A stretch of 64,000 bases of DNA. Source: Anthostomella pinea (lineage: Eukaryota; Ascomycota; Sordariomycetes; Xylariales; Xylariaceae). Below are positions 10,347 through 54,950 of this stretch, in pieces (position 1 is the stretch's first letter; every line of letters begins with the position of its first letter). The notes beneath the pieces are model-generated. The model ran no database searches. It was given only the letters and a program-made list of their open reading frames with translations, and was not told where the DNA came from. Location: contig CAUWAG010000012.1 of assembly GCA_963556695.1 (NCBI GenBank), forward strand, positions 682,001 to 746,000, given 5' to 3'. Both the position numbers and the translations under genes were made by a program.

Positions 10347-10709
10347 TTAGGTTGTATCATCACCTGGCGATCCTCGCTCGCCCCAACGCACTGCAACAAC
10401 TATTCTATTACACGAAGTCGTGATTGTCGTACTGAATCTCTCGCATAGCTCTTGGGTAGAGGTTAAAGTCTTGTCGAGGTCAATCAATCGCAGAACAGAG
10501 CCAAACCTGGCCTGCAAGTCTTGATTTGTCGACAGCGTTCCTGTGAGGGTGTCCAATGACTTCTGTGTCCCTGCGACAAGGGTCTTCGAGTTGGCGATAG
10601 CTTGCGGTGCCTCGGCTAAGCCATTGATCACCTTGTAAACGGCTTGAGCGCTCTGCGTGGCAAGACCAGCAACGGCAATTACGCTCGCTGTGACGCTTAG
10701 CGGATCCAT
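10347..10709 (-). CDS. HeLo-like / STAND N-terminal domain fragment
   Basis: The N-terminus (MDPLSVTASVIAVAGLATQS, then a helical region with EAPQAIANSKTLVAGTQKSL) is typical of the fungal STAND N-terminal or HeLo-like helical domain found on NLRs and cell-death effectors. Only about 105 residues read as this domain; the last 20 residues look out of frame, and no NACHT/NB-ARC or amyloid motif follows. It is therefore probably a truncated gene. It lies inside the 9.76-13.25 kb inverted-repeat segment. It resembles the complete HeLo-like gene at 25091 in domain class but not closely in sequence. Confidence 0.6.
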   Translation of the reverse strand: MDPLSVTASVIAVAGLATQSAQAVYKVINGLAEAPQAIANSKTLVAGTQKSLDTLTGTLSTNQDLQARFGSVLRLIDLDKTLTSTQELCERFSTTITTSCNRIVVAVRWGERGSPGDDTT

Positions 10710-18662: not shown

Positions 18663-19659
18663 GGAGCCGTCTCTTGATTTGCCTCACAACCTATGTCATG
18701 CGTCCAGGTGCACACATAACAAGGTGGCTGGGATGGCATGGGTCATAACATATCCAGGGTGCCTCGTATCCAATCGTTCCCCACACGCCGATTGGACCCT
18801 GGATCTAAGGTCGGTTCTTGAAAGCTCACATAAGTTGACACCTGTTGTATGACAGCTGTATGGATGACCACGTCGGCTAACCACGCCAGTGGAAGACGTT
18901 TACCCTGGAATACGTATGAGTCATCCCGAAGGCGCCCTTGCAGGCAGCTCCTCATGGAGACATATCCGCCTACGCGAATCTTCATGCATGATGACGCATG
19001 CATATGTGAGGGATGAGAGCCGGTTGGCTACGATGGTCCGACAACACATGGCATACGAAATGGCGTTGAAGTCGGTTGAGTCAAGTGATTCAGCTGGTTT
19101 TCAGTAGCTGCTGTCGCCATATTCTCCAGTGCCTAGTGTCGGGCCTCAAGTTCATCCAGTCCCAATATCAGTATGCAGAATCCTGGCTTCCGTTCTTCCT
19201 AGTTCTTGCAAGCAAAGGCAACATGTTTGCAGATGCTTACCTTTATACCTGACCATGATCATTGTATGTAAAGTACTTACGTTGGTAGAAAAGTGGCAGT
19301 CCAATATTGAATCTGTTTTTGAGGTGACATAGGTGGGTACTGGATAAAATCAGCGCTTCCGACCTTAAACTGCCATCTTCTGTCTGCATTCTCGATACAT
19401 GCGACGACGACCATGTCGACTGCAATTCCTGGGCATTCCTCCCGACAACACCTCCGTGGTACTCAACGGCTGGCCCACGCTACCTGCCTACACTGCTCTT
19501 TCGAGCGACTTGTTTCACTTTAATCCTGATGGGCGCTTTTGGGCGAATTTATTCTAGACATCCGATGAGACTGCCGTCCCACCAGATGGGAGTATCGTCA
19601 GTAATGGGCGACTGGAAGACAAGCTTCAAAATGGGGCACAAGAAGTAAATTGACGCCGG
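18663..19659. other. Degenerate repeat zone, no gene
   Basis: 18664-18725 resembles 9590-9660. Fragments near 18755 and 19340 recall the inverted-repeat arms at 9757 and 13124. No coding sequence is supported. Confidence 0.45.
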
Positions 19660-19960
19660 CTCTACCAGCTACATAGAGATGGCAGGGCTTCTGCGAAAAT
19701 ATGCCAAAGACCATCACAAGCCTCGTGTGTATCAGTTTCTCACCATGACCAAGAAGATGAAGGTGGAACCCTCCGCGCCTAACACACAGGACCAGAATGG
19801 AGGCGCCGAGCGCTCGGGGGGTGTGATCAAGGACAAGGCCCGTTCGATGCGAAATGGGAGGCGATTACTGTGCTGTGAGGATCTCACCATCCCGTGTTGG
19901 CGAATTTGGGTCTCTCCAACACCGAAGCCATGGAGGTGTGAGGCGTATACAAGAAGCTGA
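19660..19960 (+). pseudogene. Ty1/copia integrase fragment
   Basis: The frame reads KVEPSAPNTQDQNGGAERSG then GVIKDKARSMR, the catalytic-core region of fungal copia integrases (the Q-NG-AER motif holds the glutamate). Sequence then degenerates, and no reverse transcriptase, protease or LTR was found nearby. Confidence 0.6.
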
Positions 19961-21087
19961 TCTCACGCCCGCTCTCGGGGTGGATGAGCGGCGGTAAGAA
20001 TGTGGCATCTGTGTGCGGGAAGGTGCTAGCAAGGCCATGTATCTATCTGCAGTTGAGATGTACTCACTGCGCCTCCGTTTTTCCGCGATATTTGCAGCGA
20101 CCAATGGCCACCAGTAGTCGTCGTCATCTGCCAGGCTTTGAGCGGTAGCCCGGGATCAGATCCTCATCTCCATGCCATCTTGCCTGTTTCTGCTGGTCGA
20201 TGGGGCACTCGAAGTCGCCGAGGTGATCATATGGCATCACTGGCCTTCAGAGGATGCCATTGTCAGCTTGCTCTCATGCATCCTGGTTTTTGGCATGGAG
20301 CTTGATGTCCTCACAGGCGCTTCCAATGTCATATGGTATCGATTTTACGGCTCATGGGTGATTGCTCTTCTTTGCGATCTTGTAAACATCGTACTGCTAC
20401 TCGCTCGGATCCAAAACCCCTCCCCGAATTACGACAGGTGTCTGGGTTGGATGAATGCCCCAAATAGGGCTAGGATTCGAACAAACGATGTCCGGCGGAG
20501 TTAGGACATCCATAAATAGGAGATGTTTAAGATCATATCGTGATAATCCAGGGTTCTCTTCCGGGGCTTGCTTATGTTGTTTCTTGAAAGAATCGTGCGC
20601 CCTGAAGATATCTTTGCGGTTGGTGGCTACCATTCCAGCGGTTAAGGATCTTGTATATAAGAAGGGCAGTACAAGCAGGGTCTCAATGACGATAATTAGT
20701 CGTCCATTTGTACCGGCAGCAGGGATAGTTAGAGCCTTACTAACCTACATATAGTTCTTTTAAATAAAGTCGCCCAGCCTTCCTTTAGCATAATGGCCCA
20801 ATGCTATGAGACAGCCCGCTTGCTTCGGCTCAACCTGTGCGCAATCCATGGCCATCCCTTCTCTGCTGTTATCCAGCCCCGTACTTGGCGTTCTTCAAGT
20901 TCTGTCCACCGACTTTGTTTAACCACAGTGTTGTCCTCTTTTACCGGACCTCAGCATCTTAAACGATAAGTTGAGACATGTTGTCACCTCAGAACTCGAA
21001 TAATCAAGTAAATTAATGAGAAAGCCAATTGCTAGATGGCTAAGTCCTTTCCAAATATCCTGTAGTTTAAACACACTTATCTAGCTA
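19961..21087. other. Intergenic, 3' flank of the large NLR
   Basis: Short frames only. A box-B-like TTCGAATCC occurs (minus strand, about 20475), but no tRNA fold could be built around it. Confidence 0.4.
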
Positions 21088-24000
21088 TTAACTGGCACTG
21101 ACGCCAGTATGCGCCAGCTCCCAAGTATGCAAGGTTTCTAAGAGAGCTAGATAACATGGATGTTGAGCGCCCAAGACAGTTCGCCCAACCCGTACACATT
21201 CCCGTATCAAACCAAGAGCTTCTGGTAGTCGGCCTTGATTCCAGTACGTCGACGCCAGGTTGCCCATGCTGGTCAGCGTGGAAGGATGATCCGGCCCGAG
21301 TTTCTGTTTGTTCGTCTCCATCACTTCCACCTCCAGCTTTTCCGCCTCCTCCCATCGGCCTTGATTCCTGTATGTCGACGCCAGGTTGGCCATGCCGGTC
21401 AGCGTGTCTGGATGATCCGGCCCGAGTTTCTGCTTGCTCATCTCCATCACTTCCACGTCCAGCTTCTCTGCCTCCTCCCATCGGCCTTGATTCCAGTACG
21501 TCGACGCCAGGTTGCCCATGCTGGTCAGCGTGGAAGGATGATCCGGCCCGAGTTTCTGTTTGCTCGTCTCCATTACTTCCACCTCCAGCTTCTCCGCCTC
21601 CTCCCATCGGCCTTGATTCCTGTACGTCGACGCCAGGTTGGCCATGCTGGTCAGCGTGGAAGGATGATCCGGCCCGAGTTTCTGCTTGCGAGTCTCCATC
21701 ACTTCCACAAACAGCTTCTCCGCCTCCTCCCATCGGCCTTGATTCCAGTACGTCGACGCCAGGCTGGCCATGCTGGTGAGCGTGGAAGGATGATCCGGCC
21801 CGAGTTTCTGCTTGCTCATCCCCATCACTTCCACAAACAGTTTCTCCGCCTCCTCCCATCGGCCTTGATTCCTGTACGTCGACGCCAGGTTGGCCATGCT
21901 GGTCAGCGTGTCTGGATGATCCGGCCCGAGTTTCTGCTTGCGAGTCTCCATCACTTCCACCTCCAGCTTCTCCGCCTCCTCCCATCGGCCTTGATTCCAG
22001 TACGTCGACGCCAGGCTGGCCATGCTGGTCAGCGTGGAAGGATGATCCGGCCCGAGTTTCTGCTTGCTCATCCCCATCACTTCCACCTCCAGCTTCTCCG
22101 CCTCCTCCCATCGGCCTTGATTCCAGTACGTCGACGCCAGGTTGGCCATGCTGGTCAGCGTGGAAGGATGATCCGGCCCGAGTTTCTGCTTGCGAGTCTC
22201 CATCACTTCCACCTCCAGCTTCTCCGCCTCCTCCCATCGGCCTTGATTACTGTACGTCGACGCCAGGTTGGCCATGCTGGTCAGCGTGGAAGGATGATCC
22301 GGCCCGAGTTTCTGCTTGCGAGTCTCCATCACTTCCACCTCCAGCTTCTCCGCCTCCTCCCATCGGCCTTGATTCCAGTACGTCGACGCCAGGCTGGCCA
22401 TGCTGGTGAGCGTGTCTGGATGATCCGGCCCGAGTTTCTGCTTGCTCATCCCCATCACTTCCACCTCCAGCTTCTCCGCCTCCTCCCATCGGCCTTGATT
22501 CCTGTACGTCGACGCCAGGTTGGCCATGCTGGTCAGCGTGGAAGGATGATCCGGCCCGAGTTTCTGCTTGCGAGTCTCCATCACTTCCACCTCCAGCTTC
22601 TCCGCCTCCTCCCATCGGCCTTGATTCCAGTACGTCGACGCCAGGTTGGCCATGCTGGTGAGCGTGGAAGGATGATCCGGCCCGAGTTTCTGCTTGTGAG
22701 TCTCCATCACTTCCACGTCCAGCTTCTCCGCCTCCTCCCATCGGCCTTGATTCCTGTACGTCGACGCCAGGTTGGCCATGCTGGTGAGCGTGGAAGGATG
22801 ATCCGGCCCGAGTTTCTGCTTGTGAGTCTCCATCACTTCCACAAACAGCTTCTCCGCCTCCTCCCATCGGCCTTGATTCCAGTACGTCGACGCCAGGTTG
22901 GCCATGCTGGTTAGCGTGTCTGGATGATCCGGCCCGAGTTTCTGCTTGCTCGTCTCCATCACTTCCACAAACAGCTTCTCCGCTGGGCTCCATTGACCTC
23001 TTAGGTTACACACTTGGCCTACCATCTCGATGGCAGCAAGACTTTCCTCGTGCGTCCTCCCAAGTATCTTTGTTCTGTACTTCATCGCATCCTCCGCCAT
23101 GCTTTGCGCCTCAGGCCCCTGGCCCATTTGCTGAAGATACCACGCAGCTTTATAAAGGATCGAAGTCCATGCCTCCAATGAGACTCTGTCTTTCGGCCGC
23201 TGCGCTCCTGCCGATACGGCGTGCGGCAGAAGCGCCCGGCATATTGCCCAGTTCTCATATGCTCCGGTCGGGAGCTGGGCGTCGAGGCGACGGATAAACT
23301 GAGACTTCCATTGCTCTTGCCGTCCCGCGGCTTCAAGCCATTGTCTCGTAGCCAGCTGGACCAAGCTGTGCATTTCAAATGTCCTTCCGTCCTCAACTGT
23401 AGAGATGAACGAGTAGTCGCGCAATGTTGAGACATCCATTTCGAACTGATTATCCATGCTAGAATCCGATTCGACGTCTTCTTCGCTTGATTCTTGGTCG
23501 CTGGCCGAACCGTGCAAAGCAGGGCTCCGTTGGTGTCGGTTTGGTGTACTCGTGGGGCGTTCCTTCTCGTCCGGACTCTGTAGGAGGCTCTCAGGAATAC
23601 CTTGGCGATCATAGAAGCTCATGAGCGAAAGCAGGTCGGCTGCAGATGGTCTGGTTCGACGGATGTGGTCGAATGAGATTTGCCACGTGATGATGATCGA
23701 GTTTCTGGCCTCTCTATCTCGCCGTAACTTACCGGCGTCATAATCGAGGAGACTCGCTTTTTTCTGATCACTCTGCTCAAACTTTTCGAGGTATTGTCGC
23801 ACAGAACAACGAGGAGCTTTCTTGGAGATGTAGGCTGTCGCTTGGACAATAGCTAGCGGCATACGTTCGAGTGCGGCGGCGAGCGCCGTGGTGTTCTTGC
23901 TGTCCTGCTCCGGTCTGAGCTTTTTCTCGACAAGTGCTATCGCTTCGGCCTCGCTCATAGGTTCGACCTGAATGATACTGTATGGCTCCACAAGATCTTC

Positions 24001-24810
24001 GGCCGCGCTCATGCTTCGGCTCGTGACCAGTACGGATCCGTTCTCGCAATTCGGGAGATAATCGACAAGCCGTCCATCCGCATGTCCAGTTTGGCCATCC
24101 TCGTTACGGCTTGGAGGCTCGAGAAGGAAGCCGGCATCATCGACATTATCGAGAATGAGTCTCCACCTTCTGTCCCTCCCACCACGTAGCCAGCCGCACA
24201 CAAGCTGGAAGATATTGCTCTGCGGTTCGTCTCGCCCGGGTATCTTGACATGATCGGCGATCTCCCGGAAACTTTGTTTGTATCGCGTTGCGTTACTTGC
24301 GTGGACCCAGAAAACCCAGGTATCCGGTGATCGCTGTCGGACTTGGTACGCGTATTCGATGGCTAGCTGCGATTTTCTTCCACGAGTTAGCTTCTCGCCC
24401 TATGCCTATGCTAGTTATGCCTATGGCTTGTGTAGGTGTAGGTCGCGCATACCCAACGCCGCCCAGGCCTACGAGCGCGATACGTGTACCGGGGGTGGCA
24501 GATGCTTGGTGGATACGATCGAGTGTGTTGCCTCGCTGGATGAAGTCGTTGTCCTGGCCAAAGGGAATGATGGACGATGGATTTGGTGGAGTTTCTGGCC
24601 GTTCTGAGTCGGGGCCTCGTTAGCGCGTTGACGGTCGGCGTGGATCCAAGTGAACTGATCCAATGGAACTGATCCAAGGGAACTGATCCTAGTAGTATTA
24701 TCCTACTTACCTGGCGGGACATGGTGATGAAATTCGGTATTGGCCGAACCGTTGATTACTCCGGCCTGAAAGCCAGAGTTGCCTGGCCCGAAATGTACCG
24801 CGGAAGCCAT
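21088..24810 (-). CDS. NB-ARC/TPR NLR with N-terminal amyloid-type motif (1179 aa)
   Basis: Three exons join in frame: 24810-24711, 24603-24453 and 24376-21088. Residues 6-21 read HFGPGNSGFQAGVING, a G-F-Q-x-G amyloid-signalling-type motif. The NB-ARC domain has Walker A GLGGVGKS (79-86, split by intron 2), Walker B LILDNVDD (157-164), LVTSRS and MPLAIVQA. A winged-helix/EMHSLVQLATRQW region follows, then fifteen 42-residue TPR units (about residue 545 to the end; consensus NQGRWEEAEKL...KQKLGPDHP). No stop or frameshift is seen, which is unusual in this window. In such STAND receptors, ligand sensing by the repeats drives oligomerisation and templating of an effector's amyloid motif. The neighbouring divergent gene encodes that type of effector. 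Confidence 0.9.
21130..23010 (-). repeat. 126-bp coding tandem repeat (TPR array)
   Basis: Fifteen units: thirteen near-identical, with a degenerate unit at each end. Variation concentrates at a few codons (for example ETRKQ, GMSKQ, ETSKQ, ETHKQ, ETNKQ, and EVEV/FVEV/DVEV), the pattern expected of NLR repeats under concerted evolution and diversifying selection. Long antisense frames over it are by-products. Confidence 0.9.
24643..24690. repeat. 14-bp tandem repeat within NLR intron 1
   Basis: AACTGATCCAATGG / AACTGATCCAAGGG / AACTGATCC lies inside the first intron (24710-24604), which makes that intron (107 bp) longer than most in the window. Confidence 0.6.
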
Positions 24811-25090
24811 GGCATGATAGGATTCAGTTGCAACAATTGAGGTTGACTGTTGACGGGTGATTACAGGGCCATCTATGATCTAGGGAAGAGCAGGCTATTT
24901 GGTGGGAGGTGGGACATAGGAGTCGAGATAGGACTCGAGCACCATACGACCCACCAGCATCGTTACCATACGATACGACCCCCGTCAGCTCGGCGGCTAA
25001 AACCCCGCACATCGTCGGCCGGGCTTCCCCGCACATTGTCGGCCGGGGCTTCGTTGCCTTAGATGTCCTTCTCTACGACACGAGAACACC
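24811..25090. promoter_or_regulatory. Shared divergent promoter of NLR and effector
   Basis: The 280 bp between the two start codons must contain both promoters. It holds an imperfect 24-bp tandem repeat (25003-25026 and 25027-25051) and a repeated ACCATACGA near 24946 and 24964. Co-regulation is inferred from the arrangement; no specific factor site is claimed. Confidence 0.5.
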
Positions 25091-25951
25091 ATGGCAGACC
25101 CGCTTAATGTCGCGGCCAGCGTGGTTGGCATTACGGTTCCAGCCCTGCACGCTACGAGACTCCTTCTTACTGATTTGCAAGAGCTCAAGGATGCTCCTAG
25201 TACCGTGCGGCATTTGCAGGAAGACCTGCGTGCTCTCGACGCTGCCATCAAATCCCTTCAAGAAATCGACGACACGAAATGGGCAGTTTTAGGCCAAGAC
25301 GTGGCTGAAAACACCAAGACGACGGTTGGCACATGCCAGACGGCATGTACATTCTTCCGAGCCGACATCCAGCATTGGACTCGAAATTCTACCGCGGGAA
25401 AGCTGAGCTTGCGGGACCGAGCGAGTGTAGGCTTTTTCAAGCGAGACCGGATCAAGTCATTGACAGAGCAGCTTCAAAGCTGTAAATTGTCCATTGCCTC
25501 TGTTGTAAATGTGGCCGTCTTGTAAGCTGTTTGTCTCACGAAGACACAAGTACAAACACGGCTGACTGTAGTTTACAGGTACGCCTCTCTTCGGAACGGC
25601 CACGTTGCTGAAGAGATCAGGACTGTGGTATCTTCGCGACAGACAGAAATCACAGACGCCATTAGGACGACAAAGGATCGTCTTCAAGCTGTCGAAGACA
25701 GCATAACAACGCTGGACCTTGGTTCCCGCGAGCGAGATCAGCAAACGCTGGGACAAGAACATGAAACCTTTGCCGCTTCGCTCGAACTGTTGCAGGAACT
25801 GCTGGCCAAGTTACAGGCAGAGACGGTGGCGAAGGCTACTGCACAAAGCCAGGGTTCTGTTGGTACAGTCACGTTTGGCAGTCAAAACTCGGGCTTCCAA
25901 GCTGGACAGATCTATGGTGGGGTGACCGGGATCAGCTTTGGTAATAAGTAA
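25091..25951 (+). CDS. HeLo-like cell-death effector with C-terminal amyloid-type motif (267 aa)
   Basis: Exons 25091-25521 and 25579-25951 join in frame across a 57-bp intron. The N-terminus (MADPLNVAASVVGITVPALH, then ELKDAPSTVRHLQEDLRALD) is a HeLo-like/SesA-type helical domain, followed by long amphipathic helices to about residue 230. The last 30 residues are Gly-rich and read FGSQNSGFQAGQIYGG near residue 241, matching the NLR's N-terminal motif at F-G-x-x-N-S-G-F-Q-A-G. In HET-S-like and HELLP-like proteins this architecture (membrane-active helical bundle plus C-terminal prion-like motif) executes regulated cell death when seeded by an NLR. That role here is inference. No signal peptide is seen. 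Confidence 0.85.
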
Positions 25952-26173
25952 AGCCAGCAGGTTGGAAGAGAGGCAAGAGAGCTGAGGGACAACGAGTATG
26001 AGAATCGCGTGGACCCCGAACCATAGCATTTGTTCAAGGGGCAAATGTGCAGCGTCAGCAGCAAGCAAACGGAAGTTGACTGCTCGCTTTATAGATTTTG
26101 GTGTATCTAGGGACGCGTCAGCTTTGGATCTTTCATGTCCATGCGTGGGTGTTCAACGTGAAGCCCGCAACTC

Positions 26174-26575
26174 TTACTTCATGTCTGTATTTGACGGATG
26201 GCCCTCGTCGAGCTTGGTGTTTTTGATCTGGACTATCTTCTCTTGTAACCGCGCTGCATCTTTTGTCATCCCAAGATTATATTGGTTTGCGGACCACATA
26301 TCGTAAAGAAATGCAAGGCTCTCTGTTGGTTCGTCTGAGTCGTTCTGTATCTGGTTAAAGATATACCGGAGATGCTCTCCAAGTGCTTGACCCTCTCGAC
26401 TCATTTGTAATGAGTGATCTCTTTGGTCCTATCCTGACGGAGATTCATCCAGCTGTGGGTAAGCGAGTGCATGGCCGTTGCGTGATACCCATTGATACTA
26501 CTCCTTTTAATCAGAGCGTATGATTCTAGTTGCTTCAAAGCTTCAAACATGCGAAACGGATCCCAGGAGTGGTTG
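26174..26575 (-). pseudogene. NLR remnant: winged-helix and TPR-like fragment
   Basis: Minus-strand frames read FEALKQLESYALIKRSSING, then AMHSLTHSWMNLRQDR (the MHxLxHxW region after NB-ARC), then, after a frame change at about 26402, LAFLYDMWSANQYNLGMTKD and ARLQEKIVQIKNTKLDEGHP, a TPR-like repeat as in NLR C-termini. Upstream it is cut at about 26575 by LINE sequence. It lies immediately beyond the effector gene, so the locus once held more than one NLR. Confidence 0.65.
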
Positions 26576-26649
26576 TCGGATTGGATGAACGGTGGAAGTT
26601 TAGAGATGTACATATGCCTCGTCGGATGGCGCGTGTTCGATGCCGTCGA

Positions 26650-27081
26650 GCAACTATGAAACATTGGGCGTGCCCGGGGCACTGCGCCTTTGAGGGCAAT
26701 GAACTGGGAGAGAAGCTGGCTAAGGCCGGCTCTAAGCTCTCCAACGTCGACTCCGACTGCACGCCGACGGCGTACGGCATCAAAGCAGAGGCGGGACTCA
26801 AGCTCAAAGTCTCGCGCGACATGTGGTAGACCAAGGCCCAGACCAAGCTGTCGGCCCGCTACAAGTACTGGGACCTGAAGTACAAACTGCGCTGTCACGA
26901 AGTGCTGCAGGTACTTAAAAGGCCTTCACTACACCGCTTCCTCGCTGTCCGCTCAGGGCACGGCGACTTCTCTTGGTATCATGTCAAGTTCAAACATCAG
27001 GACGCCGTCCTCAACTGCTCGTGCGGCCGGAGCAAGACTCCGACGCACTTCATCCACCGCCGGAAGACTCTGGCACGGTAG
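26650..27081 (+). pseudogene. LINE-B fragment (RNase H and 3' zinc knuckle)
   Basis: The frame reads WACPGHCAFEGNELGEKLAK (RNase H end), then after one stop LKRPSLHRFLAVRSGHGDFS, then CSCGRSKTPTHFIHRRKTLA, the C-terminal CCHC-like region of Tad-type LINEs. The same module recurs at 51130, 46440, 43279 and 56260. Only the 3' part is present. Confidence 0.75.
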
Positions 27082-27186
27082 ACTGATCCGGGGCGCGGTC
27101 GGCTGACGCCCTGTAATTATTTAAACCCCCCGCTCGCCTCCTGTCCACCTATTCCTCAGATTCCAGTTGGTCTTGGTCACGCCACT

Positions 27187-27666
27187 ATGTCTAAAACTGC
27201 GATACTCTGGAGACTCTACAAGGATCAAGAGAATAGGGCTTTCCAGACCCTCCATCCAAATCATGATTGTCGACGTTGGTCATTAAGGATCTTCCAGGAG
27301 AGATCCCTGGCGGCCGCGAGCGCCCTCAGGAACGAACAAAGATCCGACATACTAAAGCACCTTAGTTCTGCTGTCGACTATCGAAACCAGATTGCAGCGT
27401 ATTATGAGCCCGACAGCTCACTTGGACATGCTCACTTTATATCGACTCTTACGACAGTCATTAATAAACTCCAATCCATGCAAACCACCAACAAACCCCC
27501 AGTTCCGGACTCGGTATCCCAATCTGATTCTAATAATCGCTACAGCGCTCTCGTCGTTCACGACACTCTGTCACCTGGCGATGACATTCGACATACAAGA
27601 GCTGCTCAAAAGGCGGAGCTTGATGAACCGAGTCTTGACGACGAAGATTACTCGTTCTTCATCTAA
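27187..27666 (+). CDS. Hypothetical protein, possible DUF6604-like N-terminus
   Basis: A 159-codon open frame starts with ATG 27187 and ends at 27664-27666. It is helical and charged (SAVDYRNQIAAYYEPDSSLG, HFISTLTTVINKLQ, SNNRYSALVVHD). The order of these pieces recalls DUF6604 N-terminal domains, but the match is weak. Later in-frame pieces at 27800-28130 and 28348-28881 may belong to the same gene, now broken. Confidence 0.4.
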   Translation: MSKTAILWRLYKDQENRAFQTLHPNHDCRRWSLRIFQERSLAAASALRNEQRSDILKHLSSAVDYRNQIAAYYEPDSSLGHAHFISTLTTVINKLQSMQTTNKPPVPDSVSQSDSNNRYSALVVHDTLSPGDDIRHTRAAQKAELDEPSLDDEDYSFFI

Positions 27667-28347
27667 CACATCGAGGCTGCAATTGGGGGGATAGTAAGCA
27701 CCTGGCAAGACTACACAGAGGGCAGCCTCTCTATGACTGGTGCATTTCTAGGCTAGTTCCATCTTGGCAGTAAACCTTCTCGAATTACTAACCGCTTGGT
27801 AGTGTCTAGCATCATGTGTCGAGAACTCTCTGCAAGCATACATGCTGCCAAGCTCTGCTTCGAGAATTGGTTCGCAGACAAGGGGTATTCTGACCGCTTC
27901 AGTGCTCTGCATCGTGTGAGCGTTGAAGATATGGAGTATATCAAAAGGTCAGTGTCTGTCTATAATCGTTCATGAAGTGTACTGTTGACAGTTTGGAAGT
28001 CTATTCAAGCCGGGTTCATTTCCGGTTCCGTACCCGTTGAGCCGATTGCAAGAAGAAAAGCCAGACCCTCACGAATGCGAAGTGATGGTTGGCGTCCTTC
28101 TACGTTTAAGGCAGTATCAGGCCGAATAAGGACACGCCATTGGCACAATTGAACGTCTGGAGCATGATTTGTTTTTACCCTAATATAAATGCCTTTTCCC
28201 TCCAGGACAACTCGACGCTATGAAGCCGGTACTACGCGCTGCCAAAACAGCTGCCAAGACCCATGTCGATATTTGGTCTATCGCATCAATCCAGGCTTGG
28301 GCTATGGATAACACACAATAGAGCTCAATAGGCACGTTCTAGACCTA

Positions 28348-28881
28348 CCTTTGGTTCCAACGTTTGCCCATCGCTACGACCGTTATATCCTTGGCTTGGA
28401 AGTCAGCCAGCGTTCTGAGAAGTTGGAGGAGTTCTGTAACAGCCATCAGACACGCCTCTACTGGGGTGGGAAACGCCCACGCAATAAATCGGCCATCGAC
28501 GAGTCTGTTGAGAAATGGATTCTTATTACAGACCAAGGAAGCATAAGCCTTGCAAAACAGATTGGTCAAAACAGGCATCAACAGGAATCGATAATACGGC
28601 TGTTGATAGACGACAAGTTCAGCTACGGGGAGTTGACTAAACAGATCAAAGAAGCGAAGAAGCCCGTCGACTGGGGAAACCTGCGACGATTTATCGAGCA
28701 CAGTTTGAAAACGACAGACATATGTGCCATTCGAGCAGCACTTTGCGGTAGCTTGGATGTTTCTATTCGCGATAAGTACACGGAAACTCGAGCAGCGTTA
28801 TCTCTCGCACAAAAAGACGACACTGAATTTCCCAAGCTCCTCGAGCTTGTACAGGGTAAAATCCCAGACATTTGCTCGTAA
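28348..28881 (+). CDS. Hypothetical protein fragment, downstream part
   Basis: An open frame of about 178 codons reads PTFAHRYDRYILGLEVSQRS, then TRLYWGGKRPRNKSAI, a helical middle and a stop at 28881. No family is recognised. It follows, at 27800-28130, further protein-like pieces with a probable intron (27948-28000), so 27187-28881 is best seen as one decayed gene. Confidence 0.4.
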   Translation, partial: PLVPTFAHRYDRYILGLEVSQRSEKLEEFCNSHQTRLYWGGKRPRNKSAIDESVEKWILITDQGSISLAKQIGQNRHQQESIIRLLIDDKFSYGELTKQIKEAKKPVDWGNLRRFIEHSLKTTDICAIRAALCGSLDVSIRDKYTETRAALSLAQKDDTEFPKLLELVQGKIPDICS

Positions 28882-29292
28882 AAGGGGAAGTAGGAGCACT
28901 CGATATTTGAGTCTTGAGGGGCTATTTCGTCATCATGTGTAGTAATATTGCTGCTTTCCTTCTCTTGTTCGGCTAGGATAACATCCACGATTCTCCAGAT
29001 GTTCGTGTGTGGAAATGCCGATTTTGCCGTGACGAAGGAACGTTTATCCCACATTGGGAGGTCTTCAGCGGTGGTCAGACGGGCTAGATGGAGGGCGGCA
29101 CTACTTGGAAGACCGCATCATCAACCGGACTATCTACACCGCTCCGGAGAGGCTTAAGCCTCCGTACCGTTACACCCACCCGGCTCCCGCCTATGGCCTT
29201 GGCGCAATAGCCCTGCGGGTGCTGACCCCGTATGACTCGATGATGGAGAACTACGAAGAAGGACCTCCGATCGATGCCAGAAGCTACGGTCA
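28882..29292. other. Junction region before the Ty3/gypsy remnant
   Basis: A plus-strand stretch (VRVWKCRFCRDEGTFIPHWE, 28990-29060) looks protein-like but is very short. 29080-29290 is open without a recognised domain and may belong to the retroelement. Confidence 0.35.
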
Positions 29293-30800
29293 ATGGATCG
29301 CACGGCGTTGGTACAACCACCCGGACGACACGTTTTCACTAGCCCTGAGCTCCAACATCTTTGGAACAAGGCTATCAGCGCTGACAAGACGTATTGCAAT
29401 ATCTATGCTAGTGTTGGAAGAGGAGACAGAGCCTTACCTCCTAGCCTAGGGATTGACGTACAGGCTATCGACTGCGAAATTGAAGGCAGAGGAGTCCTCT
29501 TGTATAGAGGATCAATCTGGGTGCCTGACTACGAGCCCCTTAGGACGGCATTGGTACAACAGACGCACGACTCCCACATCACAGGACACCCGGGAAGGAA
29601 TATCACAGGATGGATCTTACAACAAAACTACTTCTGGCCCCAGCAGTACAAGACAGTACGCCGCTTCTATAGAAATTGCAGTGTTTGTGGCAGGTCCAAG
29701 GTCTGGTGTCAAGCGAAGCAGGGACTTTTACGCCCGCTGTCTATACCAGACCGCTTTTTTAGCGAGCTTTCTATCGACTTTATGACCGAGCTTCCCGGAG
29801 ACGGGGACGCCCCATGAAACATGATGGTTACGGTTGCCAGAGTGTTGGGAACACTTACGCTCGAGCCACAAGATTCTATGGAAGCTGAAGCCTGTACCGA
29901 AAAGTTTATTTGGAGCCACTTTCGCTTTCATGGCTTCCAAACTTCATCACGTCTGACCGAGGGAGCAACTGGGTGGGGAAGTTCTGGACTAGATTATGCC
30001 AGCTAGTTCGAGTCGAGCAGCGCCTATCGACAGCCTATCACCCTCAGACAGACGGCCAAACAGAACGCATGAATCAGGAAGTCATTGCCTACCTACGCGC
30101 TTTTGTGGCCTATGCACAGGATGACTGGGCCAAACTCTTACCCACAGCCCAGCTAGCCATCAACAACAGACCGAATTCGAAGACAGGCCTCAGCCCCTTT
30201 TTCGTGCTGTATGGTTACCACGCCGACCCCATCCAACAACAACCTTCGCGCCGCCCCAACACATCAAAAGACCCCAAAGCAAGGACAGAGGAGTTCGTCA
30301 CGCGCCTCCACGAAGCCCAGGAGATAGCTCAGGCCGCCATGGCCACAGCACAGCAGATAATGGAGCACCAGGCGAATCGAAGCCGCCGCCCAGCAGAGAG
30401 ATTCCAGACTGGCGACAAGGTGTGGCTCAACCTCAAAAATGTCTCGACTCCACAGTTGAAGAAGAAGCTTGCTTGGACACACGCCAAATACGAGATTACC
30501 AAGATGATTTCCCCTGATGTGTACGAGCTGAACGTCCCAAGCAATATTAGGAAACGCTTTTTCGTGGACCTATTACGACGTGCTACAGAGGATCCCTTCC
30601 CATCTCAAAAGATCGATGACACACAACCCCCACCACTTCTCGACGCCCAGACCCCTTATGGTCAGTTGAGAGGATTCTTAAGGCTGATAAATTTGGGAAC
30701 AAATGAAAGGTCTTGGTAAAGTGGACAGAATATGTCGAACCAACTTGGGAACCGGGAAACAGTCTGCTTGAGATAACGCTTCTTCAGACTTCGCCAGGAA
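29293..30800 (+). pseudogene. Ty3/gypsy pol 3' half: integrase and chromodomain
   Basis: The H2C2 zinc-binding part reads THDSHITGHPGRNITG and NCSVCGRSKVWC. The core begins LSIDFMTELP, with a stop at 29815; ITSDRGSNWVGKFW and YHPQTDGQTERMNQEVIAYL give the later catalytic residues in another frame. A chromodomain-like VLVKWTEYVEPTWEPGN lies near 30705-30760 after another frame change. Reverse transcriptase, RNase H and gag are missing upstream, so the element is 5'-truncated and dead. Confidence 0.85.
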
Positions 30801-30848
30801 CCTCGCGTTCTGCACCATATCATCAGCAGTTATTCTCTGCAACCTCCA

Positions 30849-30972
30849 CGTACGTGCCCGCCAATACTTCCTGCGATGGTACCTGTAGTCTGACTCACAT
30901 GAGAAAATGGATCGGTCCAAGCTTCTTCACATCACGCGTCAACCATGTAGCTCCCCAAGAATGGATCAGCTC
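30849..30972 (+). repeat. Ty3/gypsy 3' terminal sequence, also at 8069-8192
   Basis: It begins about 80 bp after the chromodomain and is matched in reverse complement by 8069-8192. Probably LTR or 3' UTR of the element. Confidence 0.5.
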
Positions 30973-31656
30973 GGACCTGTCCGTACCTACCCATCACGAC
31001 AGTCAGGGTGCTGTGACAACCACAGCAGCGAGATGGTCTGTCTTCTGGGTGGGTTTATGCCCTGTGCGTCTCTGCCCCACTGGAGATCTTCCGGTATCTA
31101 TTTCCGGCTCCCATCAAACAAGTATCAGCAACGTTTCTCCGCCAGTGTAGGCCGCGTCACAGGGGTCCGCCGCTATATATTACTAAAGTAGCTATTAAGC
31201 GAGGCTTAGTGGCGGCTTGGCATCTACCCCGCTACTCTGCACTTTTCCGTATGTGGAAATGGATCAATAATGAAGACCCCAGGCGGCTACGAAAGTAAAC
31301 AACGATAATATCCGACCTTTCGTCCTTATTAATCCCTTTGTCCCTTCTTACTGTGGATTGTCGTCATGTCAGCAACGTTGAGCACGAACGTCGTCAGTAC
31401 CAGGTCTGCATCATTGCCACTCCGTCCTTACCGCCAGGGCAGAAGGAAGATGACCCGAAGCTGCGTCATGCTCGACGGGATATACACACGTCATTGAGAC
31501 TCACTCAGTACATGAAATTGATTTAAACGCCATTTTTAAAATCTTCTTTTATGATAGAAACGACCTGAGTGTACCCTGTCTGGTTCAAGTGTTGGCTCAA
31601 ACGAAGACAAGTCGTGTGTCTCGCAGCATATGGTATTGAAGGGGCATAGATTACGC
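30973..31656. other. Intergenic, no recognisable gene
   Basis: Nothing recognisable. A Ty3/gypsy LTR may extend here, but no terminus was identified. Confidence 0.35.
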
Positions 31657-32043
31657 TTATAGCGCGGCTACGACTATTAAGCACAAGATAGTCGTAATAA
31701 TGGCAAAACATAGGCTGCCAATCAAATACCCCACGCTTTCACCCTGGACGGAGTGAATCCAGTTTGCAACGTCTCCGGCGCTCGACACAAACTTCCGGAC
31801 AACTATGACAGGAATTGCGTAAAGAACACATGAAGCCAACCCCAGTACGATGGGTATGGTGAATCTTAACCAGATGGAATCCATGAACAGATCTCCAAGA
31901 GCTGTGATAATCGCAAGCCCTGTTAGGCATGTGAGGAGAAGACTGCCCACAATCCACGGGTCGCGGATGGGGTCAGCCTTGAACCCTCTAAGGGTTTTCT
32001 TCAACGCATTAAGCTGGCTGATATCAATACCCAGGTTGTTCTG
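31657..32043 (-). CDS. Multi-pass membrane protein, 5'-truncated
   Basis: The minus-strand frame is open from about 32043 to the stop at 31657. It reads ISQLNALKKTLRGFKADPIR, then three to four hydrophobic segments (IVGSLLLTCLTGLAIITALG, FTIPIVLGLASCVLYAIPVI, YLIGSLCFAIITTILCLIVV). The 5' part is lost where LINE-A copy 2 begins at about 32060, which suggests disruption by that insertion. The family is not recognised. Confidence 0.5.
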   Translation of the reverse strand, partial: QNNLGIDISQLNALKKTLRGFKADPIRDPWIVGSLLLTCLTGLAIITALGDLFMDSIWLRFTIPIVLGLASCVLYAIPVIVVRKFVSSAGDVANWIHSVQGESVGYLIGSLCFAIITTILCLIVVAAL

Positions 32044-54639: not shown

Positions 54640-54812
54640 AGTCCAGTGCTCATACCGCCGCAACAACGGGGATGGGCCCGTGAGCGGGACTGACTGTACT
54701 TATTATCTTGAGACCTCCACAACCCTGCGATACAGAGGCTCTGGGAGGCGTGGTTTGCACTACTGAGGAGCTACCCCCCACGTTAAATACAATCAATCAA
54801 TCAATCAATCAA
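54640..54812 (+). mobile_element. LINE-A 3' end, severely 5'-truncated copy
   Basis: About 150 bp match the LINE-A 3' UTR (60345-60495, opposite strand), including CATACCGCCGCAACAACGGG, and end in ACGTTAAATACAA(TCAA)n. The tail unit is CAAT, as in the SINE, whereas LINE-A copy 1 has an AAAC-type tail. Confidence 0.8.
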
Positions 54813-54821
54813 TCATAAAGC

Positions 54822-54950
54822 TGCATGGTATCTTCAAATGATGGGCCAGGGGCCTGAGGCGCAAATCATGGCGGAGGATACGATGAAGTACAGAACAAAG
54901 ATACTTGGGAGGACGCACGAGGAAAGTCTTGCTGCCATCGAGATGGTAGT
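54822..54950 (+). pseudogene. Fragment of an NB-ARC/TPR NLR paralogue
   Basis: The frame reads MGQGPEAQIMAEDTMKYRTK then ILGRTHEESLAAIEMV, nearly identical to the NLR at 21088-24810 (pre-TPR region, 23030-23160). It lies directly behind the (CAAT)n tail of a LINE-A copy, so a LINE insertion in, or rearrangement of, an NLR paralogue is likely. It is lost after 54948. Confidence 0.8.

What the first reader, a model, noticed from the sequence alone, without database searches (positions are those of the whole stretch)
21088..25951. Head-to-head NLR and HeLo-like effector sharing a G-F-Q-A-G amyloid-type motif
The NLR's first exon encodes FGPGNSGFQAGVING and the divergent HeLo-like gene ends with FGSQNSGFQAGQIYGG; ten residues in F-G-x-x-N-S-G-F-Q-A-G align. 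Both genes splice to unbroken frames in a window where most genes are dead. In fungi, NLRs with an N-terminal prion-like motif activate neighbouring effectors carrying the same motif at the C-terminus (HET-S/NWD2 and PP/RHIM-like systems). The Q-x-G core recalls the PP/RHIM class, but I cannot assign it to a named class. This is the best candidate for a complete, undescribed cell-death signalling locus in the window.
Basis: partly seen in the sequence, partly recalled or inferred. Interest (0 to 1): 0.92.

Follow-up and report, generated by a model that had tools for sequence, protein, structure and literature searches.

The report
Fungal PP-amyloid receptor and killer pair
The fungus Anthostomella pinea carries, head to head, an immune-type receptor gene and a HeLo-like effector gene whose two ends share one short motif; by homology to the tested PNT1/HELLP pair of Podospora, the receptor is predicted to trigger cell death by passing an amyloid fold to the effector.

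Summary
In Anthostomella pinea a 1179-aa NB-ARC/TPR receptor (21088-24810, minus) and a 267-aa HeLo-like effector (25091-25951, plus) start 280 bp apart. Receptor residues 5-21 and effector residues 241-257 match at 12 of 17 positions; 0 of 5000 shuffles scored as high.

The motif is not a new class. Both copies hit Pfam PF17046, which a recent paper calls PP, 'misnamed SesB' (below its 23.2-bit cut-off: 20.0 and 14.4). The effector aligns almost end to end with a 271-aa Podospora protein, probably a HELLP orthologue. Relatives keep the motif: 104 of 120 listed receptors; the core glycine in 42 of 42 chosen effectors. The architecture is that of PNT1/HELLP. Best reading: an intact two-gene PP signalosome; amyloid formation and killing are untested.

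Beyond the finding, the pair is duplicated, with a faster-changing repeat array. Three head-to-head pairs on contig C5, their receptors decayed, end instead in the motif of HELLF (E 3e-16), yet share this receptor's C-terminal half (86-90% DNA identity). So receptors carrying two different amyloid motifs have exchanged sensor sequence. Swapping of signalling ends between sensors is the novel reading.

The parts
21088..24810 (-). PNT1-like NLR gene, three exons (24810-24711, 24603-24453, 24376-21088), 1179 aa
   Evidence: splicing and translation; Pfam NB-ARC, DUF7779, TPR_10
24748..24798 (-). N-terminal motif of the NLR, residues 5-21
   Evidence: 12 of 17 identical to the effector tail; PF17046 at residues 3-24
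21178..22941 (-). array of 14 TPR units of 126 bp (counted from KLGPDHP; the last unit diverges)
24811..25090 (.). 280-bp intergenic stretch between the two start codons, presumed shared promoter region (inference)
   Evidence: coordinates only
25091..25951 (+). HELLP-like effector gene, exons 25091-25521 and 25579-25951, 267 aa, HeLo-like domain at residues 2-201
   Evidence: Pfam PF17111 E 7e-23
25868..25918 (+). C-terminal motif of the effector, residues 241-257
   Evidence: PF17046 at residues 243-260
20949..23873 (-). sensor half of the NLR with 3' flank, 85-90% identical in DNA to the C5 receptors where they align (arrays of different length); a more sensitive search follows the match at lower identity to 24375
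18846..31776 (.). stretch duplicated on contig C7 at 97.6-99.1% identity, the C7 array one repeat unit shorter

Best explanation
This is a two-gene pair of the PNT1/HELLP (PP-motif) kind, a receptor with the motif at its N-terminus followed by NB-ARC and 14 near-identical TPR units, head to head with a HeLo-like effector that ends in the same motif, and it is predicted to trigger cell death by passing an amyloid fold from receptor to effector. The supposed steps are: an unknown ligand binds the TPR array; the NB-ARC domains oligomerise; the clustered N-terminal motifs fold as a PP amyloid; this templates the effector's tail; the HeLo-like domain then attacks the membrane. Gene structure, shared motif, family relationship and intact frames are shown here. 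Oligomerisation, amyloid folding, templating and killing are inferred from Podospora PNT1/HELLP and were not tested. The repeat array has changed faster than its surroundings since the pair was duplicated in this genome, which would suit a recognition surface.
For: Shared motif far above shuffles; PF17046 on both sides, which is PP according to PMC12261475; effector 38% identical and 61% similar to P0246 of Podospora pseudocomata, 271 aa, motif included; motif kept in 104 of 120 listed NLR relatives and its core glycine in 42 of 42 chosen effectors; four species with consecutive locus tags for the pair; same domain architecture as PNT1/HELLP; array 55 differences in 1033 bp against 21 in 3414 bp between the C9 and C7 copies.
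Against: PF17046 scores stay below the curated cut-off (20.0 and 14.4 bits against 23.2), though the Podospora relative P0246 also misses it (23.1). The second Asn of the published NxGxQxGxN core is shifted by one in the NLR (NxGxQxGxxN) and replaced by Tyr in the effector, and one core hydrophobic is Ala. No structure search gave a HeLo or MLKL match, and neither motif matched a solved RHIM amyloid by sequence. No expression, amyloid or death assay.
Confidence: 0.86

Rival explanations
1. The G-F-Q-A-G motif is a separate, undescribed amyloid class that only resembles PP.
For: Sub-threshold PF17046 scores; only 15 of 42 aligned effectors hit PF17046 at E <= 0.1; in the listed relatives the shifted NxGxQxGxxN form outnumbers NxGxQxGxN, 74 against 19 of 175 effectors and 73 against 9 of 120 NLRs, lists that lean towards the window's spelling.
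Against: Both spellings occur at the same place in one continuous gene family that includes the Podospora protein of HELLP's length; members of both spellings hit the same profile.
Confidence: 0.06
2. The pair is conserved in sequence but no longer works here, one more decaying copy in a region with relics.
For: C5 copies of related receptors carry stops; effector and NLR relics lie nearby; the motif's tail Asn is Tyr here.
Against: Both genes are open in two genomic copies, C9 and C7; outside the eight variable codons pN/pS in the repeats is 0.09; only 6 differences in 1587 bp between the copies around the effector.
Confidence: 0.06
3. The motif belongs to another named class: sigma, PUASM or a HET-s-related motif (HRAM).
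For: Those motifs too are short, Gly/Gln/Asn-rich and shared between NLRs and effectors (PMC9815663).
Against: No NACHT_sigma or HET-s profile hit was listed; the PUASM pattern FxGxGxQxxGxGxF fails at Gln-4 and Gln+3, and no PNP_UDP domain is found; the HELLF-type motif exists in this genome in other pairs and scores 18 and 27 against the window's termini, against 54 for the window's own pair.
Confidence: 0.02

Closest known systems
PNT1/HELLP of Podospora anserina (PMC7885112)
   Same: Two adjacent genes; NLR with N-terminal PP motif, NB-ARC and TPR; HeLo-like effector with C-terminal PP motif; variable TPR number (4 to 10 among Podospora pnt1 alleles)
   Different: Motif spelled GFQAG with the second Asn shifted or lost; 14 TPR units; pair duplicated in the genome; amyloid and death not tested
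PNT1/HELLP/SBP cluster of Chaetomium globosum (PMC5485727, PMC7885112)
   Same: PP motif, NLR and HeLo-like effector
   Different: That cluster has a third gene, a putative lipase SBP with the motif; a PF17046 search of the A. pinea genome found only this pair, its C7 copy and one weak hit, and that search misses at least one PP-like relic on C9
FNT1/HELLF of Podospora (HRAM5; PMC7889193)
   Same: NLR with N-terminal motif beside a HeLo-like effector; in A. pinea the HELLF-type pairs on C5 share the window receptor's sensor half
   Different: Different motif; no cross-seeding with PP in Podospora
NWD2/HET-S of Podospora (PMC5485727)
   Same: Receptor N-terminus templates the tail of a HeLo-type effector
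   Different: NACHT and WD40 receptor; HET-s beta-solenoid motif in two repeats on the effector

Membership tests
PNT1/HELLP (PP-motif) signalosome | NLR with NB-ARC and TPR | tested here: met
   Pfam NB-ARC E 2e-8; TPR_10 E 2e-232 with 16 stretches
PNT1/HELLP (PP-motif) signalosome | adjacent gene with a HeLo-like domain | tested here: met
   PF17111 E 7e-23; 280 bp between start codons
PNT1/HELLP (PP-motif) signalosome | same motif at NLR N-terminus and effector C-terminus | tested here: met
   12 of 17 identical; 0 of 5000 shuffles as high
PNT1/HELLP (PP-motif) signalosome | PP profile (PF17046) above its curated cut-off | tested here: inconclusive
   20.0 and 14.4 bits against 23.2; the Podospora relative P0246 scores 23.1, P0258 25.1 and P0070 26.2
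PNT1/HELLP (PP-motif) signalosome | core NxGxQxGxN | tested here: inconclusive
   NxGxQxG met on both sides; the final Asn is shifted by one in the NLR and is Tyr in the effector
PNT1/HELLP (PP-motif) signalosome | sequence homology to HELLP | tested here: met
   38% identity over residues 3-267 to P0246, 271 aa, Podospora pseudocomata; that P0246 is the HELLP orthologue is inferred from genus and length
PNT1/HELLP (PP-motif) signalosome | motif forms amyloid and seeds the effector to kill | not testable with these tools
   needs bench work
PUASM signalosome | pattern FxGxGxQxxGxGxF and a PNP_UDP effector | tested here: not met
   pattern from PMC9815663 compared by eye: Gln-4 is Asn, Gln+3 is Val (NLR) or Gln (effector); effector is PF17111
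sigma-motif signalosome | NACHT_sigma profile match | tested here: not met
   no such hit listed up to E 1 or, for the N-terminal 44 aa, E 10
HRAM5 / HELLF-type signalosome | tail homologous to the HELLF amyloid (6EKA) | tested here: not met
   the profile of 42 relatives of the window's effector lists no 6EKA, while the C5 effectors match it at E 3e-16

The most novel reading that the evidence does not exclude
Head-to-head amyloid signalosomes act as exchangeable cassettes. Because the effector, the shared promoter and the receptor's motif exon lie side by side, one recombination behind the motif exon or within the NB-ARC region swaps a matched motif-effector unit onto an existing sensor. In A. 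pinea one TPR sensor has thus been wired to two amyloid channels, PP/HELLP in this window and HRAM5/HELLF on contig C5, channels that do not cross-seed in Podospora.
Probability: 0.33. Interest if true: 0.66.

Novelty: new member of a known kind. Interest (0 to 1): 0.42.

Why it matters
It adds a complete, duplicated PNT1/HELLP pair, and shows that among the relatives found here the GFQAG / NxGxQxGxxN spelling of the PP motif is more frequent than NxGxQxGxN, a spelling that Pfam's profile mostly misses (15 of 42 members hit at E <= 0.1). If the cassette reading is right, what a receptor senses and which amyloid channel it uses can evolve separately, a simple route to rewiring immune signalling that population genomes can test.
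Full report
WHAT IS THERE. The window is part of a 53.7-Mb genome, that of Anthostomella pinea, named through the identical deposited effector protein P0001. The genome paper is PMC10763133 (passages seen; the terms NLR and heterokaryon do not occur in its main text). On the minus strand, 24810 to 21088, a three-exon gene encodes 1179 aa: a short motif exon, NB-ARC with an intron in the Walker A stretch, DUF7779 and a TPR array. On the plus strand, 25091 to 25951, a two-exon gene encodes 267 aa: a HeLo-like (PF17111) domain and a C-terminal copy of the motif. The start codons are 280 bp apart.

THE MOTIF. The local score is 54, the highest of 5000 shuffles 46; the 14 effector slices tested that exclude the motif reach at most 17. 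Both copies hit PF17046 below its cut-off of 23.2 bits: effector 20.0; NLR 14.4 in a 455-aa piece and 19.3 as a 44-aa peptide. PMC12261475 (passages) calls PF17046 'PP (misnamed SesB)'. PMC9815663 (sections 19, 24, 33 and passages) gives the PP core as NxGxQxGxN and counts PP motif 07 in 296 NLRs.

RELATIVES. The effector search gave 93 hits; the core regular expression stands in the last 80 aa of 50 of them. The other 43 include exon-1 fragments, truncated models and a few full-length proteins whose core differs. In 42 effectors that I chose from the 93, G249 is kept in 42, F264 in 40, and F243, N247, Q251 and G253 in 39 each. The NLR search found 848 proteins, of which the best 120 were listed; 104 of the 120 keep the motif, most of them at residue 10 or 11. 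Four species list the pair under consecutive locus tags: Coleophoma BP6252_09458/09459, Trapelia MMC30_009216/009217, Leptodophora ACEPPN_000485/000486, Arachnomyces FQN54_008954/008955. A third search (best 120 of 225 listed) brought P0246 of Podospora pseudocomata, 271 aa. It aligns with residues 3-267 of the window's effector, 38% identical and 61% similar, motif included. In PMC7885112 (results part 1 of 4, bioinformatics methods, passages) HELLP's C-terminal construct ends at residue 271; that P0246 is its orthologue is my inference. In 11 pairs an effector's motif resembles its own partner's motif more than a shuffled partner's, P 0.017, not corrected for phylogeny; an earlier, badly anchored run gave P 0.46.

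HOW IT LIKELY WORKS. In Podospora the C-terminal PP region of HELLP and PNT1 residues 1-31 form prions that activate HELLP; HELLP then relocates to the cell membrane region and cells die (PMC7885112, as above). The same gene pair, domains and motif placement are met here, so I infer the same mechanism: ligand binding, oligomerisation, amyloid nucleation, templating, membrane attack. None of these steps was tested for this pair. The C. globosum cluster has a third PP gene, SBP; a PF17046 search of this genome showed only this pair, its C7 copy and one weak hit, and it missed a PP-like effector relic at C9:529434, so it is not exhaustive.

THE SENSOR EVOLVES FAST. The array has 14 units of 42 aa; the 13 units compared are 90.7% identical on average. 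The C7 duplicate has 13 units. Between the two copies a 1033-bp stretch of the array holds 55 differences and the next 3414 bp hold 21. Amino-acid variation concentrates in eight codons of the unit; elsewhere pN/pS is 0.09. This agrees with the concerted evolution and diversifying selection reported for fungal NLR repeats (PMC4986451, passages).

TWO MOTIFS, ONE SENSOR HALF. Contig C5 holds three head-to-head pairs. Their receptors carry in-frame stops; their effectors are open in two of three. The effector tail matches PDB chain 6EKA, from Podospora chromosome 3, at E 3e-16; that 6EKA is the HELLF(209-277) amyloid is recalled. The N-terminus of the C5 receptor scores 42 against that tail (8 of 5000 shuffles reach it), while window and C5 motifs score only 18 and 27 across. 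I therefore call the C5 pairs HELLF-type. Yet over window 22984-23873 their receptors are 90.4, 90.4 and 86.2% identical to this one in DNA, and matches go on through arrays of 12, 2 and 1 units into the 3' flank, to 20949 or 20854. A more sensitive search follows the match at lower identity up to 24375, the start of exon 3. In protein, blocks from residue 341 to 465 are 64-100% identical to C5 and 40-80% to P0095, the PP receptor of Apiospora kogelbergensis; blocks from 41 to 165 are 41-79% and 84-92%.

TREES. With 56 rows, the N-terminal half (residues 41-249) joins window, C7 and P0095 (100/98), with P0205 next (89/84), and puts the C5 rows beside P0131 (89/75). All eight form one group (100/98), so the C5 receptors are not far outside the PP-type receptors even here. 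P0205 and P0131 have PP-like N-termini. The C-terminal half (residues 285-455) joins window, C7 and the three C5 rows (100/98), with P0095 next (99/96). Forcing window, C7 and C5 together in the N-terminal half is rejected (AU p 0.027, group chosen after seeing the data); forcing window, C7 and P0095 together without C5 in the C-terminal half is not rejected at 0.05 (p 0.079). So the sensor half was shared between the two kinds of receptor after the split from Apiospora, with the change of kinship somewhere near residues 270-340. Whether the rest of the C5 NB-ARC domain is of HELLF-type or of PP-type origin cannot be told, since no HELLF-type receptor of another species was in the tree. If it is of PP-type origin, the motif exon and effector alone were swapped, which is the cassette reading in its sharpest form.

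NOVELTY. The locus is a new member of a known kind. Exchange of repeats between receptors with different N-termini is known for the Podospora nwd family (PMC4986451, passages). I found no report of exchange between PNT1- and FNT1-type pairs in two searches of the open-access library (listings) or in passages of PMC12258605 and PMC10197012; most subscription papers are not held.

Noticed in passing
window 10419-10709, minus: Fragment of a HELLF-type effector (residues 1-97, 93.8% identical to the C5 effector), without the rest of the gene; a like fragment lies at C7:256416.
   Followed up: partly
window 54805-54948, plus: 48-residue fragment of the NLR region just before the array (89.6% identical), a relic.
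   Followed up: no
L012 4641-5006 (C9:529434 region): Effector exon 2 relic, 75% identical, still ending in a PP-like tail TFGSQNTGFQRGVVYGG; no first exon matched there.
   Followed up: partly
window 26174-26925, minus, and 26530-27081, plus: By eye from the ORF list: NLR/TPR-like fragments beside RNase-H-like retroelement fragments just downstream of the effector; a similar RNase-H-like ORF lies on C10 (L041).
   Followed up: no
window 24604-24710 (intron 1 of the NLR): The intron holds about three tandem copies of a roughly 15-base unit around GGATCAGTTCC.
   Followed up: no
P0025 / P0172 (Arachnomyces): Both partners have Glu instead of the core Gln of the motif, a possible paired change worth testing.
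   Followed up: no
L013, L014, L015 (contig C5): Against the window, C5 receptor copies show 41-74 C>T-type changes against 15-20 reverse ones over 890 bp, a RIP-like excess not confined to CpA.
   Followed up: partly
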